Made by a program: the position numbers and the translations under genes. A DNA stretch of 29,355 bases from positions 1-29,355 of IMG/VR virus record IMGVR_UViG_3300031659_000057. One strand, 5' to 3'. Source of the stretch: a virus. This document shows positions 8,152 to 29,259 of this stretch, piece after piece (the stretch's first letter is position 1; each line of letters begins with the position of its first letter). A model generated the notes under the pieces. It did not search any database. It saw only the letters and a program-made list of their open reading frames with translations, and was not told where the DNA came from.

Positions 8152-8159
8152 TATAAGTA
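8152..8159 (+). promoter_or_regulatory. Possible late promoter variant TATAAGTA
   Basis: TATAAGTA differs by one base from the T4 late consensus and lies about 50 bases upstream of the lipoprotein gene, right after the previous stop. No early cassette precedes that gene, so a late promoter is plausible. Confidence 0.4.
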
Positions 8160-8209: not shown

Positions 8210-9442
8210 ATGAAAATCGAATATACAATGAGCATCATTCTAATTCTGCTGAACATGGCAGGATGCGGAGGTGGTGGTGGTGGATCAGATAATCCCTTTG
8301 TTGAACCACCAATTATAGTAGAACCACCAATTATAGTAGAACCTCCTGTGATTATAGAACCACCAGTTATAATTGAACCACCAGTTATAATTGAACCACC
8401 AGTTATAATTGAACCACCAGTTATAGTTGAACCTCCTGTGATTGTAGAACCACCTCTGACTCAAATGAGTAAACCCGATGATTGTCCGACCGATGCAAGT
8501 GGGTTTACTGGTGACTATCCATATATAACGTGTGATGGCATCCGTACCACCGATGACATTGACTATCCATACAGTGCAGACAATACCGAGATTGCTATCA
8601 TAGATTTGCTTGCAGTGGTTGATACTAATTTGGATGAAGAACTGGACGGACTGAGTCGAACAGAGTTTGTGCAACGAGAAATAGACTTTGCCAATAAGGT
8701 AAACAAGGACTCTGGTGTCCATATAATGATACGGTTAGTTGGACTAAAAACCGTAGAAGTCCGTAGAGATGATCTATACAGACAGATCAAGTATTTCTCT
8801 GAAAGCAGAAGCGAATTCTCTAACTTAGATGAGTGGCAGAGAGATGCTGGTGCTGACTTTGCATTCCTGTTCAAGAAAATAGAAGATGAACCAATTGCAT
8901 GTGGTGTAGCACTATACAAGGCAGATCGCCAACCGTACAAGTACCGTAGGGGTGTCACCCAGTGTTTCAGGAATAGCGTATTTCAAGAAAGTGAAGTTAC
9001 ACGATACTATGAACGAGCAGGTGAAACTTTCGCTCATGAGATGGGACATCTTTTTGGTCTCGACCACAACATCGAATCTTCCTTTGTCACGCCTATATTC
9101 ATGTTTTCCTATGGATACCTGATTCCAGGATACGATCCTGAACTCAATGATCAGTGGAATGGATACGGAACAGTAATGAGTTATTCAGACAAAGGGACTG
9201 GTCGTTTCTCTGATAGGTCAGAACGATTCACCATACCAGAGACAGGTACATCTCAGCGATTAGGAAGAGATCAACAAAACTCTAACTATGTGGGTGGCGA
9301 TGCGATTCCAGCAACAGATGGAGTTGATCATCTCAATCGTGTGCGATACCACATGAGTCAATTGCATGAGATGTATGGTGATGGAGAAGATCAATCCCAA
9401 TCCCTTGCACTGTTCAATGGACACAATATATGCCTGTTTTGA
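8210..9442 (+). CDS. Lipoprotein with metzincin zinc-protease domain
   Basis: 410 residues. Residues 1-19 are a lipoprotein signal ending NMAGC (Cys19), then a Gly run. Residues 32-83 are a Pro-rich stalk of EPPxIV/EPPVII repeats. The globular part has the zinc motif HEMGHLFGLDH (His276, Glu277, His280, His286) and a Met-turn TVMSYS (Met323), diagnostic of metzincin metalloproteases. It should be an outer-membrane- or periplasm-anchored protease made in the infected cell, or a virion-associated one. No strong Shine-Dalgarno; placed after a possible late promoter. Phage-encoded lipoprotein metzincins are uncommon. Confidence 0.85.
   Translation: MKIEYTMSIILILLNMAGCGGGGGGSDNPFVEPPIIVEPPIIVEPPVIIEPPVIIEPPVIIEPPVIIEPPVIVEPPVIVEPPLTQMSKPDDCPTDASGFTGDYPYITCDGIRTTDDIDYPYSADNTEIAIIDLLAVVDTNLDEELDGLSRTEFVQREIDFANKVNKDSGVHIMIRLVGLKTVEVRRDDLYRQIKYFSESRSEFSNLDEWQRDAGADFAFLFKKIEDEPIACGVALYKADRQPYKYRRGVTQCFRNSVFQESEVTRYYERAGETFAHEMGHLFGLDHNIESSFVTPIFMFSYGYLIPGYDPELNDQWNGYGTVMSYSDKGTGRFSDRSERFTIPETGTSQRLGRDQQNSNYVGGDAIPATDGVDHLNRVRYHMSQLHEMYGDGEDQSQSLALFNGHNICLF
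8303..8458 (+). repeat. 18-bp tandem repeats coding the EPP stalk
   Basis: Eight full 18-bp units plus a partial one, all in frame (GAACCACCAGTTATAATT and variants). Units 1-2 are identical, 4-6 are identical, and 3 and 8 use CCTCCTGTG in place of CCACCAGTT. The pattern fits slippage or unequal-recombination growth of a stalk. Confidence 0.95.
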
Positions 9443-9461: not shown

Positions 9462-9469
9462 TATAAATA
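9462..9469 (+). promoter_or_regulatory. Late promoter TATAAATA
   Basis: Exact T4 late octamer in a non-coding AT-rich stretch, 47 bases before the ATG of the tail-fibre-like gene. It is followed by two AATATTAAATAG repeats. Confidence 0.75.
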
Positions 9470-9515: not shown

Positions 9516-10562
9516 ATGGCATGGAAACATATTCCTAACAATCCCCATTGGCAGTACGATGATGCTCCAGCAGACCCTGGAGCAAACAGTCCATATAGAC
9601 CTCTGTGGTTAAAACAAACTGAGGGAATTCGAACGAACAGTGGCGGAAACGAAGTTTTCACGAAAGTTCGCAAGGTTGGAATCACCGTCGATACTATGGG
9701 TGAGCTGAGTAAAACATTCTGGGACGCTCAAGGTGATGAGGTGTTAGGCACAGACGCATTTGAACTGCTAATAGAAACCAATGCTGGTAACCAGTCCATG
9801 GTGCTGGGCGGCCGCAGTGGATACACTTACAACGCAGTAGTTGATTGGGGCGATGGTACCAGTACAACATCTGTAACTCACTATGCTGATGCCGTTCACA
9901 CTTATGTTACCGCAGGTGAGTATACTATTTCTATCACAGGTACTTTCCCTGCTATTAAAATGTACAATGAACCATCATCAGCATACATCAGGAAAGTATC
10001 GAATCTTGGAAAGGTTGGATGGAAAAGTTTTAGGAACGGTTTCTATGCGTGTACTGGTATGACCGAATTTACCATGGGAAATACTGATACATCTGGTGTT
10101 ACAGAAGCACAAAATATGCTTCGTGGATGCTCGGGACTCGTAGGCACCCTCGACCTGACCAGTATGATAGGTTCGAATTGTGTCAACACTACCGCTATGA
10201 TTAGAGAGTGTTCTTCTGTAACGTCCGTGGTTTTTACTGGATGGGACACATCTTCACTTCCGAGATTTAAAGATATGATGCACAACTGTACTGCGCTAGT
10301 GAACGTAACAGGAATAGAAGATTGGAATATTACGGGGGTGAACGTGGCAGATGCCTTTAGTCAGATACTCACAAACGGTAGAATGACAACAGCACAGTAC
10401 GATGCCCTGTTGGTTAATTGGGATGCCCAGAGTCCCCTTCCGCAAACCGGAGGGACATCGCGATTCGGAAACTCAACATATACATCCGGTAGTGCAGCAG
10501 AGACTTCTAGGACCAATCTAATAAATGAGGGTTGGACAATCTCGGATGGGGGTAGTGTATGA
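9516..10562 (+). CDS. Tail-fibre-like virion protein with PKD-like and BspA-like repeats
   Basis: 348 residues. The N-terminus (MAWKHIPNNPHWQYD..P.DPG) resembles the start of phage tail-fibre or virion appendage proteins. A PKD-like domain follows at about residues 85-143 (VVDWGDGT...HTYVTAGEYTISITG). Four Cys at 179, 205, 232 and 258 have 26-27-26 spacing, each in a [F/M]..C..[LMV] setting, as in BspA/DUF285 26-residue surface repeats. Probable role: receptor binding or decoration of the particle. Expressed from a late promoter with the next small gene. Confidence 0.72.
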   Translation: MAWKHIPNNPHWQYDDAPADPGANSPYRPLWLKQTEGIRTNSGGNEVFTKVRKVGITVDTMGELSKTFWDAQGDEVLGTDAFELLIETNAGNQSMVLGGRSGYTYNAVVDWGDGTSTTSVTHYADAVHTYVTAGEYTISITGTFPAIKMYNEPSSAYIRKVSNLGKVGWKSFRNGFYACTGMTEFTMGNTDTSGVTEAQNMLRGCSGLVGTLDLTSMIGSNCVNTTAMIRECSSVTSVVFTGWDTSSLPRFKDMMHNCTALVNVTGIEDWNITGVNVADAFSQILTNGRMTTAQYDALLVNWDAQSPLPQTGGTSRFGNSTYTSGSAAETSRTNLINEGWTISDGGSV

Positions 10563-11667: not shown

Positions 11668-11870
11668 AAGACCTAAAAGAACTGAGTAATCAGGAACTGC
11701 TTGAGATGCGCGACACGGCATATGAAGAGGAGTTGCGATTAAAAGCGAGTGCTTGGAGGTATGGCAGTAAAACCTCAGTTTCGAGGATAGTTACATCATG
11801 CGCGAATGAGATAGGTCGCAGGATGATCGAAGGCACAATGGAATTTAATGATGATGGAGAATTGATATGA
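11664..11870 (+). CDS. Small hypothetical protein, 68 residues
   Basis: MKDLKELSNQELLEMRDTAYEEELRLKASAW... helical, charged, with one Cys; no recognised family. First gene after cassette 7, coupled (ATGA) to the PEP-CTERM-like gene. Its start region is a copy of its own end. Confidence 0.68.
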   Translation: MKDLKELSNQELLEMRDTAYEEELRLKASAWRYGSKTSVSRIVTSCANEIGRRMIEGTMEFNDDGELI

Positions 11871-12475
11871 ACAAGTTAAGTTTTTGCAGTGCAGCAATGT
11901 TTGCTGCTGTTTCCTTTGGCACGAATGCCAATACAATTAATTTGGATACATGGAATAGTGATGATGTACATTGTAGTCCCGCATGCGATGGATTGGTCGT
12001 ATCAACAAGTATTGATAATTCGGCAAATTTTGATTGGAGTTTAACGGATGCCACTGGAATAGAAGAGACTTGGCGGTTGCCACTCAGTTCATTATTTGAT
12101 AGGACAGTTTACTATATAAATATCGTTCTTGTGAATTCTGGTATTGAACCTGTAACTGGTTATAAAGTGAGGAGTACCGCCATTGATACATTTGAAAGCA
12201 CTAGTATAACAACTGCTGCACCTTTCTGGAGTCTGTCTATGGATAACAGTAAGACCTGGTTTTTTAGTAACAATCCCAACGGCATGCCGACTGAAATAAC
12301 AGGAATTCCGTGTGATGGCGTTGGTTTCAGACCGTGTAGACAATACATCACAGAGTATAACTACACTCCTTCCCCCGTCCCAATTCCAGCAGCAGCATGG
12401 TTATTCGGTAGCGCACTGGTTGGACTATTAGGTATTGCAAGAAGAAAAAACAATGGAGGATTTTTTAATGAGTAA
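11867..12475 (+). CDS. Exported protein with PEP-CTERM/VPxPA-type sorting tail
   Basis: 202 residues. A Sec signal peptide ends near GTNAN (about residue 22) and a beta-rich middle with four Cys follows. The C-terminus has VPIPAAAWLFGSALVGLLG (171-189) followed by ARRK. The P-x-P-A-A-A-W-L-F-G-S-A-L motif, hydrophobic helix and Arg cluster define PEP-CTERM-class signals, which are cut and sorted by host exosortase. So the protein is probably displayed on or released from the infected cell. It lies in an early operon (cassette 7), which fits superinfection exclusion or surface modification; that is inference. Confidence 0.85.
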   Translation: MNKLSFCSAAMFAAVSFGTNANTINLDTWNSDDVHCSPACDGLVVSTSIDNSANFDWSLTDATGIEETWRLPLSSLFDRTVYYINIVLVNSGIEPVTGYKVRSTAIDTFESTSITTAAPFWSLSMDNSKTWFFSNNPNGMPTEITGIPCDGVGFRPCRQYITEYNYTPSPVPIPAAAWLFGSALVGLLGIARRKNNGGFFNE

Positions 12476-28023: not shown

Positions 28024-29259
28024 ATGAAATCATTTCTACACCAACAGATTCTGTCTGAACAGAAGAATACCCACATGACACACTTGGAAGATCAGGTTAT
28101 CTATGGTGGTGTGGACGGAACCCGACAGGCAATCAATGCCTTGAGGGAACTCCGTGATATGTTGCAGGGTAAGCACAAGCAAGACATCTCTGTAAAGTGG
28201 GATGGCGCACCAGCAATCTTTGCTGGCACTGACCCAAGCGATGGAGAGTTCTTTGTCGCCAAGAAAGGTGTCTTCAATAAGAACCCCAAAGTTTATAAAA
28301 CAAAAGCAGATGTTGATGCCGATACATCTGGCGACCTCAACACAAAAATGAATGCTGCACTTGAGTTACTACCACTGCTTGGAATCAAAGGTGTCATACA
28401 GGGCGACTTCTTGTTCGGTCCTGGTGATGTGCAGAATAAAGGTATCGGTGGAGAAAAGTATACAACATTTCACCCCAACACTATTGTGTATGCGTTCCCT
28501 GCCAAGTCCATAGGTGCAAAGGAAGTTAAGAAGGCGACCATAGGAATCGTTTGGCACACAACATACACAGGTTCTTCATTTGAAACACTGAAAGCATCCT
28601 ATGGTGTTAACGTAAACATACTGAAAACCACAAGTAAGGTATGGTCTCAGGATGCCATGCTGCGTGATGTCTCGGTTGCTACGCTAACGGAAAAGGAAAC
28701 TAAGGCGGTTGATGCTGCCTTATCTAATGCGGGTAAGTTGTTTTCTAAAGTAGCGGGAAGCACTCTGCGTCAACTAGAAGCAAACCCACAACTTGCCCAA
28801 CTGATAGAGCAGTTCAACAATACCTTTGTTCGTAAGGGCGAAATGATCAAAGACTCGCGCAGACATACCATCGCATTACAGAACTGGTTGAAAGCAAAAT
28901 ACAAGAAGGAAGAGGACAAGCGTTCAAGTGATGCTGGTAAGAAAGTCCAGCAGAAGAAACTCGCAGAGATATTGTCATTCTTCTCAAAGGAAAACAGTGC
29001 AAGTCTTATTAACATGTTTGAGTTGCAAAAGCAGTTGGTAACGGCAAAACTAATCCTTATAAATAAACTCAATGACCTTGCAAGTATTGACACATTTGTC
29101 AAGACAAGTAAGGGGTATAAGGTTACTGGTCAAGAGGGTTTCGTTGCCATTGATAAACTTGGTGGAGATGCTGTTAAACTTGTTGACCGAATGGAATTCA
29201 GTTACAACAACTTCTCTCCCGATATCTTAAAGGGTTGGGACTCTAAGGGGCGTGGTTAA
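28024..29259 (+). CDS. DUF6267-like protein with ligase-type KWDG motif
   Basis: 411 residues. N-terminus ILSEQKNTHMTHLEDQVIYGG and VKWDGAPAIFAG (Lys58-Trp-Asp60-Gly61), PSDGEFFVAKKGVFNKNPKV, GVIQGDFLF (127-130) and IGIVWHTTYTG. This is the large marine T4-like phage family I know as DUF6267. K-x-D-G plus a following GDFLF resemble motifs I and III of covalent nucleotidyltransferases (DNA/RNA ligases), so a nucleotidyltransferase activity is possible but unproven. Late-promoter driven; followed after 3 bases by another gene. Confidence 0.78.
   Translation: MKSFLHQQILSEQKNTHMTHLEDQVIYGGVDGTRQAINALRELRDMLQGKHKQDISVKWDGAPAIFAGTDPSDGEFFVAKKGVFNKNPKVYKTKADVDADTSGDLNTKMNAALELLPLLGIKGVIQGDFLFGPGDVQNKGIGGEKYTTFHPNTIVYAFPAKSIGAKEVKKATIGIVWHTTYTGSSFETLKASYGVNVNILKTTSKVWSQDAMLRDVSVATLTEKETKAVDAALSNAGKLFSKVAGSTLRQLEANPQLAQLIEQFNNTFVRKGEMIKDSRRHTIALQNWLKAKYKKEEDKRSSDAGKKVQQKKLAEILSFFSKENSASLINMFELQKQLVTAKLILINKLNDLASIDTFVKTSKGYKVTGQEGFVAIDKLGGDAVKLVDRMEFSYNNFSPDILKGWDSKGRG

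What the first reader, a model, noticed from the sequence alone, without database searches (positions are those of the whole stretch)
8210..9442. Lipid-anchored metzincin protease on a repeat stalk
Lipobox, an expandable EPP stalk and a complete HExxHxxGxxH with Met-turn give a surface-anchored zinc protease. This is unusual for a phage and not explained by known lysis or injection systems. It could process surface receptors, cut host outer-membrane proteins to prevent reinfection, or release progeny.
Basis: partly seen in the sequence, partly recalled or inferred. Interest (0 to 1): 0.68.

Follow-up and report, generated by a model that had tools for sequence, protein, structure and literature searches.

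The report
Stalked, lipid-anchored phage zinc protease

Summary
ORF 8210-9442 encodes a 410-aa protein: lipoprotein signal peptide (MAGC), an 18-bp tandem repeat coding an EPPVII stalk, and a complete metzincin domain. Reprolysin (M12B) Pfam models score above cut-off, and an AlphaFold2 model (pLDDT 84.5, pTM 0.87) matches Acinetobacter CpaA (Z 21.8) and snake-venom/ADAM(TS) adamalysins (Z about 15).

It is not a one-off: 65 other virus contigs, mostly T4-like, share the architecture. Zinc motif, Met-turn and lipobox are kept in every member that covers them; median dN/dS is about 0.10. None was found in 50,697 phage records, and bacterial genomes gave only distant reprolysins. Stalk sequence is exchangeable (EPP or ~45-aa Cys repeats). 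A C-terminal Cys-X-Phe/Tyr, not noticed before, ends 63 of 65 complete proteins after a variable linker.

The gene sits in many places. In seven contigs its ATG overlaps the stop of a SleB endolysin; elsewhere it lies between clamp-loader genes 44 and 62, or beside gp23 and a phage-encoded TonB receptor.

Best reading: an active protease tethered in the host envelope, helping to open it at lysis; receptor removal is the main rival. Surface location, activity and substrate are untested. New variant of a known kind.

The parts
8210..9442 (+). whole gene, 410 aa, ATG to TGA; lipid-anchored reprolysin-like metzincin
8210..8266 (+). lipoprotein signal peptide MKIEYTMSIILILLNMAG-C; lipidated Cys19 codon at 8264-8266
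   Evidence: sequence; lipobox conserved in relatives
8267..8284 (+). poly-Gly linker after the lipid Cys (+2 Gly)
   Evidence: sequence; +2 residue Gly 47, Ser 8, Asp in L085 and L118
8303..8459 (+). EPP[VI]I[VI] stalk, 18-bp tandem repeat
   Evidence: repeat units printed
8462..8590 (+). conserved N-terminal cap QMSKPxxC...Y.TCDG; Cys92 (8483-8485) and Cys108 (8531-8533) conserved in 97% or more of members
   Evidence: confident in the model (about pLDDT 90)
8591..9373 (+). catalytic metzincin domain (residues 128-388)
9035..9067 (+). zinc-binding motif HEMGHLFGLDH (276-286)
   Evidence: sequence; intact in 64 of 64 members that cover it
9167..9184 (+). Met-turn GTVMSY (320-325)
   Evidence: sequence
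9374..9427 (+). variable, low-confidence C-terminal linker
9428..9439 (+). C-terminal ICLF; conserved Cys-X-Phe/Tyr end, Cys408
   Evidence: 63 of 65 complete 3' ends; kept after an inserted domain in L078/L010
7480..8145 (+). upstream neighbour, phrog_11543 (unknown function); also directly upstream of the metzincin in L076, L078, L079 and L039
9516..10562 (+). downstream neighbour with PKD/DUF285 domains; same gene in the cluster of the closest relative L076
17788..18306 (+). SleB-type cell wall hydrolase (endolysin) of this phage, not adjacent here; its homologue is directly upstream of the metzincin in nine related contigs

Best explanation
The gene makes an active zinc endopeptidase of the adamalysin/reprolysin type, exported during infection by the host Sec and lipoprotein machinery and tethered by its N-terminal lipid, most likely to the outer membrane. 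The stalk (about 65 residues here, up to 193 in relatives) holds the catalytic domain at reach from the membrane. There it cuts host envelope proteins. I think its most likely use is to help take the envelope apart around lysis, for example by cutting outer-membrane or peptidoglycan-associated proteins after or alongside the endolysin. Shown: intact gene, fold, catalytic residues, purifying selection, lipobox, stalk, translational coupling to an endolysin gene in one set of relatives. Inferred: catalytic activity, membrane and side, substrate, timing. Rough split: active envelope-tethered protease acting on host envelope proteins about 0.75; lysis or envelope opening as the specific use about 0.4.
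For: Fold and family: Pfam Reprolysin_3/4/5 above cut-off; model pLDDT 84.5, pTM 0.87; CpaA 6o38 Z 21.8 over 205 residues, adamalysins/ADAM(TS) Z about 15. Activity: HExxHxxGxxH and Met-turn kept in all members that cover them; median dN/dS 0.10 over 42 pairs. Tether: lipobox in all members with complete 5' ends. Stalk is selected as a spacer: two unrelated stalk types joined to the same domain. Envelope/lysis link: SleB endolysin directly upstream in nine contigs (L029, L084, L093, L095, L100, L101, L102, L104, L108), with a 4-bp ATGA overlap in seven of them (SleB by Pfam and PHROGs). Precedent: a phage-derived Listeria metzincin, with its lipoprotein partner, sensitises cells to phage lysis and increases virion release (PMC8235301).
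Against: In the window itself the endolysin gene is 8 kb away. In many relatives the gene lies among replication genes (between clamp-loader genes 44 and 62), which suggests early or middle rather than late expression there. The nine endolysin neighbours may be one locus receiving alleles by recombination rather than independent associations. No late promoter consensus sits cleanly upstream of the window gene (only TATAAGTA at 8152, one mismatch). No activity or localisation data exist.
Confidence: 0.4

Rival explanations
1. Superinfection exclusion or receptor removal: the protease is displayed on the infected cell, cuts the phage's own outer-membrane receptor or another surface protein, and so blocks a second infection and stops progeny from sticking to debris.
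For: Phage exclusion proteins are often lipoproteins made early (T5 Llp, PMC9586334; Rtp45, PMC12685063). Placement among replication genes in many relatives fits early or middle expression. Four relatives have a phage-encoded TonB-dependent receptor gene immediately next to it, convergent. Frequent movement between genomic sites and sporadic presence look like accessory cargo (absent from the complete Phage C48C1).
Against: Known exclusion lipoproteins work by binding, not cutting. Receptor-specific proteins tend to diversify, whereas this domain is strongly conserved (dN/dS about 0.10). Coupling with endolysin in some relatives points elsewhere. Outward orientation not shown.
Confidence: 0.3
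2. Extracellular function: the enzyme digests matrix, biofilm, competitor or grazer proteins, or external protein for amino acids, during infection.
For: Closest structural match CpaA and the weak sequence match Mep72 are secreted bacterial proteases. Some relatives carry an isocitrate lyase gene nearby, a metabolic cargo gene.
Against: A lipid anchor would be an odd choice for a secreted digestive enzyme; no other constant metabolic neighbour.
Confidence: 0.12
3. Virion-associated protein that cuts surface proteins during adsorption or injection.
For: Some relatives place the gene next to gp23 and the scaffold gene.
Against: A Sec/lipoprotein signal sends it out of the cytoplasm where virions assemble; in those relatives it is on the opposite strand to the capsid genes.
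Confidence: 0.04
4. Inactive or decaying cargo gene of bacterial origin.
For: Reprolysin-like proteins are common in bacteria.
Against: Open frame, intact active site and dN/dS of 0.07-0.30 in all close pairs; phage members form one side of a supported branch against 30 bacterial relatives (96/88).
Confidence: 0.03

Closest known systems
CpaA of Acinetobacter (glycan-specific adamalysin-like protease; PDB 6o38)
   Same: Best structural match of the catalytic domain, Z 21.8, 205 residues, 20% identity; extended zinc motif and Met-turn. In CpaA the active site is covered by the C-terminal tail of its chaperone CpaB (PMC7542363), which is a parallel for the conserved C-terminal tail here.
   Different: CpaA is a type II secretion substrate, not a lipoprotein; the match covers only chain residues 370-574, and the phage protein has a signal and stalk in place of the N-terminal part. 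Glycan specificity untested here.
Adamalysin/reprolysin metzincins (M12B; snake venom proteases, ADAM, ADAMTS)
   Same: Fold Z about 15; sequence profile hits to the family in the PDB at E 3e-07; Pfam Reprolysin models above cut-off.
   Different: Viral, lipid-anchored on a repeat stalk; own Cys-containing N-terminal cap and C-terminal CxF.
Listeria Mtz/Tim pair of phage origin (PMC8235301)
   Same: Phage-derived metzincin that acts at the envelope and promotes phage lysis.
   Different: Mtz is secreted and acts on a lipoprotein partner Tim; here the protease itself is the lipoprotein and no constant partner gene was found beside it.
Phage outer-membrane lipoproteins Llp (T5) and Rtp45 (Rtp)
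   Same: Phage-encoded lipoproteins acting at the outer membrane.
   Different: They bind and jam the receptor; they have no protease domain.
Bacterial reprolysin-like lipoproteins, e.g. L061 (Epsilonproteobacteria MAG)
   Same: Lipobox followed by a Gly run, reprolysin domain.
   Different: 22% identity, no C-terminal CxF, no N-cap Cys pair, no repeat stalk seen.

Membership tests
Metzincin clan | HExxHxxGxxH zinc motif | tested here: met
   HEMGHLFGLDH 276-286; 64 of 64 members
Metzincin clan | Met-turn | tested here: met
   GTVMSY 320-325; all members that cover it
Metzincin clan | metzincin fold | tested here: met
   model pLDDT 84.5, pTM 0.87; top structural matches all metzincins, Z 14.5-21.8
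Reprolysin/adamalysin (Pfam M12B-like) | profile score above curated cut-off | tested here: met
   Reprolysin_3 37.7 (22.4), _5 37.1 (27), _4 31.1 (22) bits
Reprolysin/adamalysin (Pfam M12B-like) | peptidase activity | not testable with these tools
   needs protein
CpaA-type glycoprotease | cleavage at O-glycosylated Ser/Thr after Pro | not testable with these tools
   needs assay
CpaA-type glycoprotease | large N-terminal domains before the catalytic domain | tested here: not met
   only signal, stalk and a 43-residue cap precede the domain (sequence; one search aligns only chain residues 370-574)
Mep72 (NCBIfam NF052434) | score above 645 bits | tested here: not met
   31.9 bits
BF0631-type metalloproteinase lipoprotein (TIGR03952) | score above 208.1 bits | tested here: not met
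   10.6 bits
Bacterial lipoprotein | lipobox after a hydrophobic stretch | tested here: met
   MAG-C19 after MKIEYTMSIILILLN; conserved in relatives
Bacterial lipoprotein | lipidation in the cell | not testable with these tools
   needs labelling or globomycin test
Listeria Mtz/Tim-like pair | adjacent TIMP-like lipoprotein partner | tested here: inconclusive
   no constant neighbour across contexts; TIMP fold not searched in neighbours
Phage superinfection-exclusion lipoprotein | blocks adsorption or injection of a second phage | not testable with these tools
   needs infection assay

The most novel reading that the evidence does not exclude
A phage-specific family of stalked, membrane-tethered sheddases kept latent by a built-in C-terminal cysteine latch: the conserved terminal Cys-X-Phe folds back on the zinc until the enzyme is in place, then releases, so that the phage can shear host envelope proteins at a set stage. 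In support, the terminal Cys makes the cysteine count odd in the simplest members (four core Cys plus one), and the only two members without the tail (L005, L082) have exactly four; CpaB's tail plays such a part for CpaA (PMC7542363). The model gives no position for the tail (pLDDT under 50), so this is untested; a free thiol for cross-linking, or a recognition tail, is equally open.
Probability: 0.25. Interest if true: 0.75.

Novelty: new variant of a known kind. Interest (0 to 1): 0.6.

Why it matters
If right, many environmental T4-like phages carry a dedicated, tethered protease for remodelling the envelope of the infected cell, an enzyme class in phages for which I found only the Listeria locus as a described precedent. 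It offers a direct test of how such phages open or alter the outer membrane, and a ready family of small, stalk-mounted adamalysins with a conserved C-terminal tail whose role (latch, cross-link or tag) can be tested with single mutants.

Tried and rejected
First AlphaFold job on a two-sequence alignment gave pLDDT 31 and was discarded. PDB search with the single sequence found nothing; only the profile worked. BFVD search gave only giant-virus and insect-virus metalloproteases, with TM-scores of about 0.3. No relative in INPHARED phages with three queries. Plasmid hits were distant reprolysins of Xanthomonas and Sodalis, 26% identity for those listed. Genome scan with the four-member alignment found no relative; the wider alignment found only distant reprolysins. 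Tested whether the C-terminal CxF is a general tag: no other ORF among about 1,300 neighbours ends with it, and none of 32 bacterial relatives does. Looked for a constant partner gene: none. Late-promoter and sigma-70 scans were inconclusive. Considered host identification: only indirect clues (Gram-negative by lipoprotein and phage kin), left open. L010/L078 has an extra domain of about 150 residues before the tail; no Pfam match.

Full report
What is there. The window is a 29,355-base virus record. Its gene content is T4-like; the DUF6267 protein at 28024-29259 is 64% identical to that of Phage C48C1, Kyanoviridae. ORF 8210-9442 encodes 410 residues: a signal peptide ending in MAG-C19, six glycines, an EPPVII-type stalk from an 18-bp tandem repeat, a conserved cap of 43 residues, a catalytic domain with HEMGHLFGLDH and GTVMSY, a short linker and the end ICLF. 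Pfam places the domain in the reprolysin-like M12B group, above curated cut-offs.

Structure. With 26 aligned family members AlphaFold2 gave pLDDT 84.5 and pTM 0.87 for residues 85-410; only the last 15 residues are below 50. Foldseek and VIA-align give as first match 6o38 chain A, CpaA of Acinetobacter (Z 21.8, rmsd 2.7, 205 residues), then venom adamalysins, ADAMTS and ADAM proteases at Z about 15. A profile search of PDB sequences finds the same families (E 3.4e-07).

A phage family. Successive scans of IMG/VR contigs with growing alignments gave 1, 3, 40 and 68 loci. Leaving out six distant contigs without a lipobox (L039-L043, L122), 65 contigs besides the window carry the lipoprotein form, 51 distinct in the catalytic part. 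Every member with a complete 5' end has a lipobox (55 by pattern; L085 and L118 read by eye, both with Asp at +2). The +2 residue is Gly in 47 and Ser in 8 of the pattern matches. The zinc motif is intact in all 64 that cover it. Pairs with moderate divergence have dN/dS of 0.07-0.30, median 0.10. A maximum-likelihood tree puts all phage members on one side of a branch (96/88) against 30 bacterial relatives, and the EPP-stalk members, with the window, on one branch (100/99). Several bacterial branches are very long, so the exact root is unsure. No member was found in 50,697 phage records, and bacterial genomes gave only distant reprolysins.

Stalk and tail. The same catalytic domain is mounted on two unrelated stalks: EPP repeats (41-73 residues from lipid to domain in those measured) or Cys-containing repeats of about 45 residues (up to 193 residues). 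This suggests that spacing, not stalk sequence, is selected; that is inference. The protein ends in Cys-X-Phe/Tyr in 63 of 65 complete 3' ends, after a linker of 19-48 residues, and even after an inserted domain in L010/L078. The two exceptions, L005 and L082, have four cysteines in this part where their EPP relatives without the inserted domain have five. No neighbouring ORF and no bacterial relative has this end. A latch on the zinc, a cross-link or a recognition tail are all possible; the CpaB tail that covers the CpaA active site (PMC7542363) makes the latch worth testing first.

Context. The gene moves. In the window and L076 it lies in a shared cluster with phrog_11543 and a PKD/DUF285 gene in a different order. 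In ten contigs it follows a 78-residue ORF downstream of the large clamp-loader gene and precedes the small clamp-loader gene and regA; in L042, which has the distant form elsewhere, these two clamp-loader genes overlap, so the site is empty. In nine contigs it follows a signal-peptide SleB endolysin, and in seven of these the TGA of the endolysin and the ATG of the protease overlap as ATGA. In others it is convergent with gp23 or with a phage-encoded TonB-dependent receptor beside gp23. L005 and L082 sit next to a ribonucleotide reductase gene in what looks like another phage type.

How it most likely works. Export by Sec, lipidation at Cys19 and a +2 Gly predict an outer-membrane lipoprotein, by general knowledge of the E. 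coli Lol rule. The domain then works at a distance set by the stalk. Which side it faces is open. Endolysin coupling, the Listeria metzincin precedent (PMC8235301) and strong conservation make envelope opening at lysis my first choice, at about 0.4. Early-region placement in other relatives and the habit of phages of using lipoproteins for exclusion (PMC9586334, PMC12685063) make receptor removal a close rival, at about 0.3.

Known or new. The enzyme is a member of the reprolysin-like metzincins. The lipid-anchored, stalked phage form with a CxF tail did not pass the cut-off of any other named family in Pfam, NCBIfam or PHROGs (best PHROG match E 2e-04, unknown function), and a search of open-access papers for reprolysin with phage found no description of it. 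Absence from those sources does not prove that nobody has seen it. I call it a new variant of a known kind.

Noticed in passing
L087:1849-4707 (-); also L085, L090, L036, partial in L101:14881-17011: Phage-encoded 952-aa TonB-dependent receptor (barrel E 1e-33, plug E 4e-14) with a signal peptide and an N-terminal ParB/nuclease-like domain (ParBc_2 E 2e-04, just below cut-off), beside the metzincin and gp23. Only four weak relatives in INPHARED. Possibly an exclusion or DNA-scavenging device.
   Followed up: partly
window 11867-12475: Phage protein with a signal peptide and a C-terminal VPIPAAAWLFGSALVGLLGIARRKN end resembling VPLPA-/PEP-CTERM exosortase sorting signals (NCBIfam E 2e-04, slightly below cut-off), as if made for display by the host's exosortase.
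   Followed up: no
window 9516-10562: PKD plus DUF285 (BspA-like) protein directly downstream of the metzincin; kept in the same cluster in L076.
   Followed up: partly
L083:3702-4247 (-), L121, L093:14551-15159, L102:15122-15664: Small exported protein of about 180 residues with a beta-barrel look and C-terminal aromatic or Leu; possible phage-encoded outer-membrane protein; no Pfam or PHROG match for L083.
   Followed up: no
L029:4347-5594; same family in L100, L101, L104, L106, L107, L111: Isocitrate lyase gene (Pfam ICL, E 3e-85) next to or near the metzincin: a metabolic cargo gene of these phages.
   Followed up: no
L039-L043, L122: Distant metzincins (22-26% for those aligned) without lipobox or CxF tail that keep the C...Y..C.G cap; in L039 directly downstream of phrog_11543 as in the window.
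   Followed up: partly
window, + strand: Exact TATAAATA occurs ten times or more on the + strand and never on the - strand, as expected of T4-type late promoters; one is at 9462 before the DUF285 gene.
   Followed up: partly
L007/L077 and L033/L113, glycosyltransferase family: Family-2 glycosyltransferase genes lie upstream of the clamp-loader cluster in ten contigs that carry the metzincin there.
   Followed up: no
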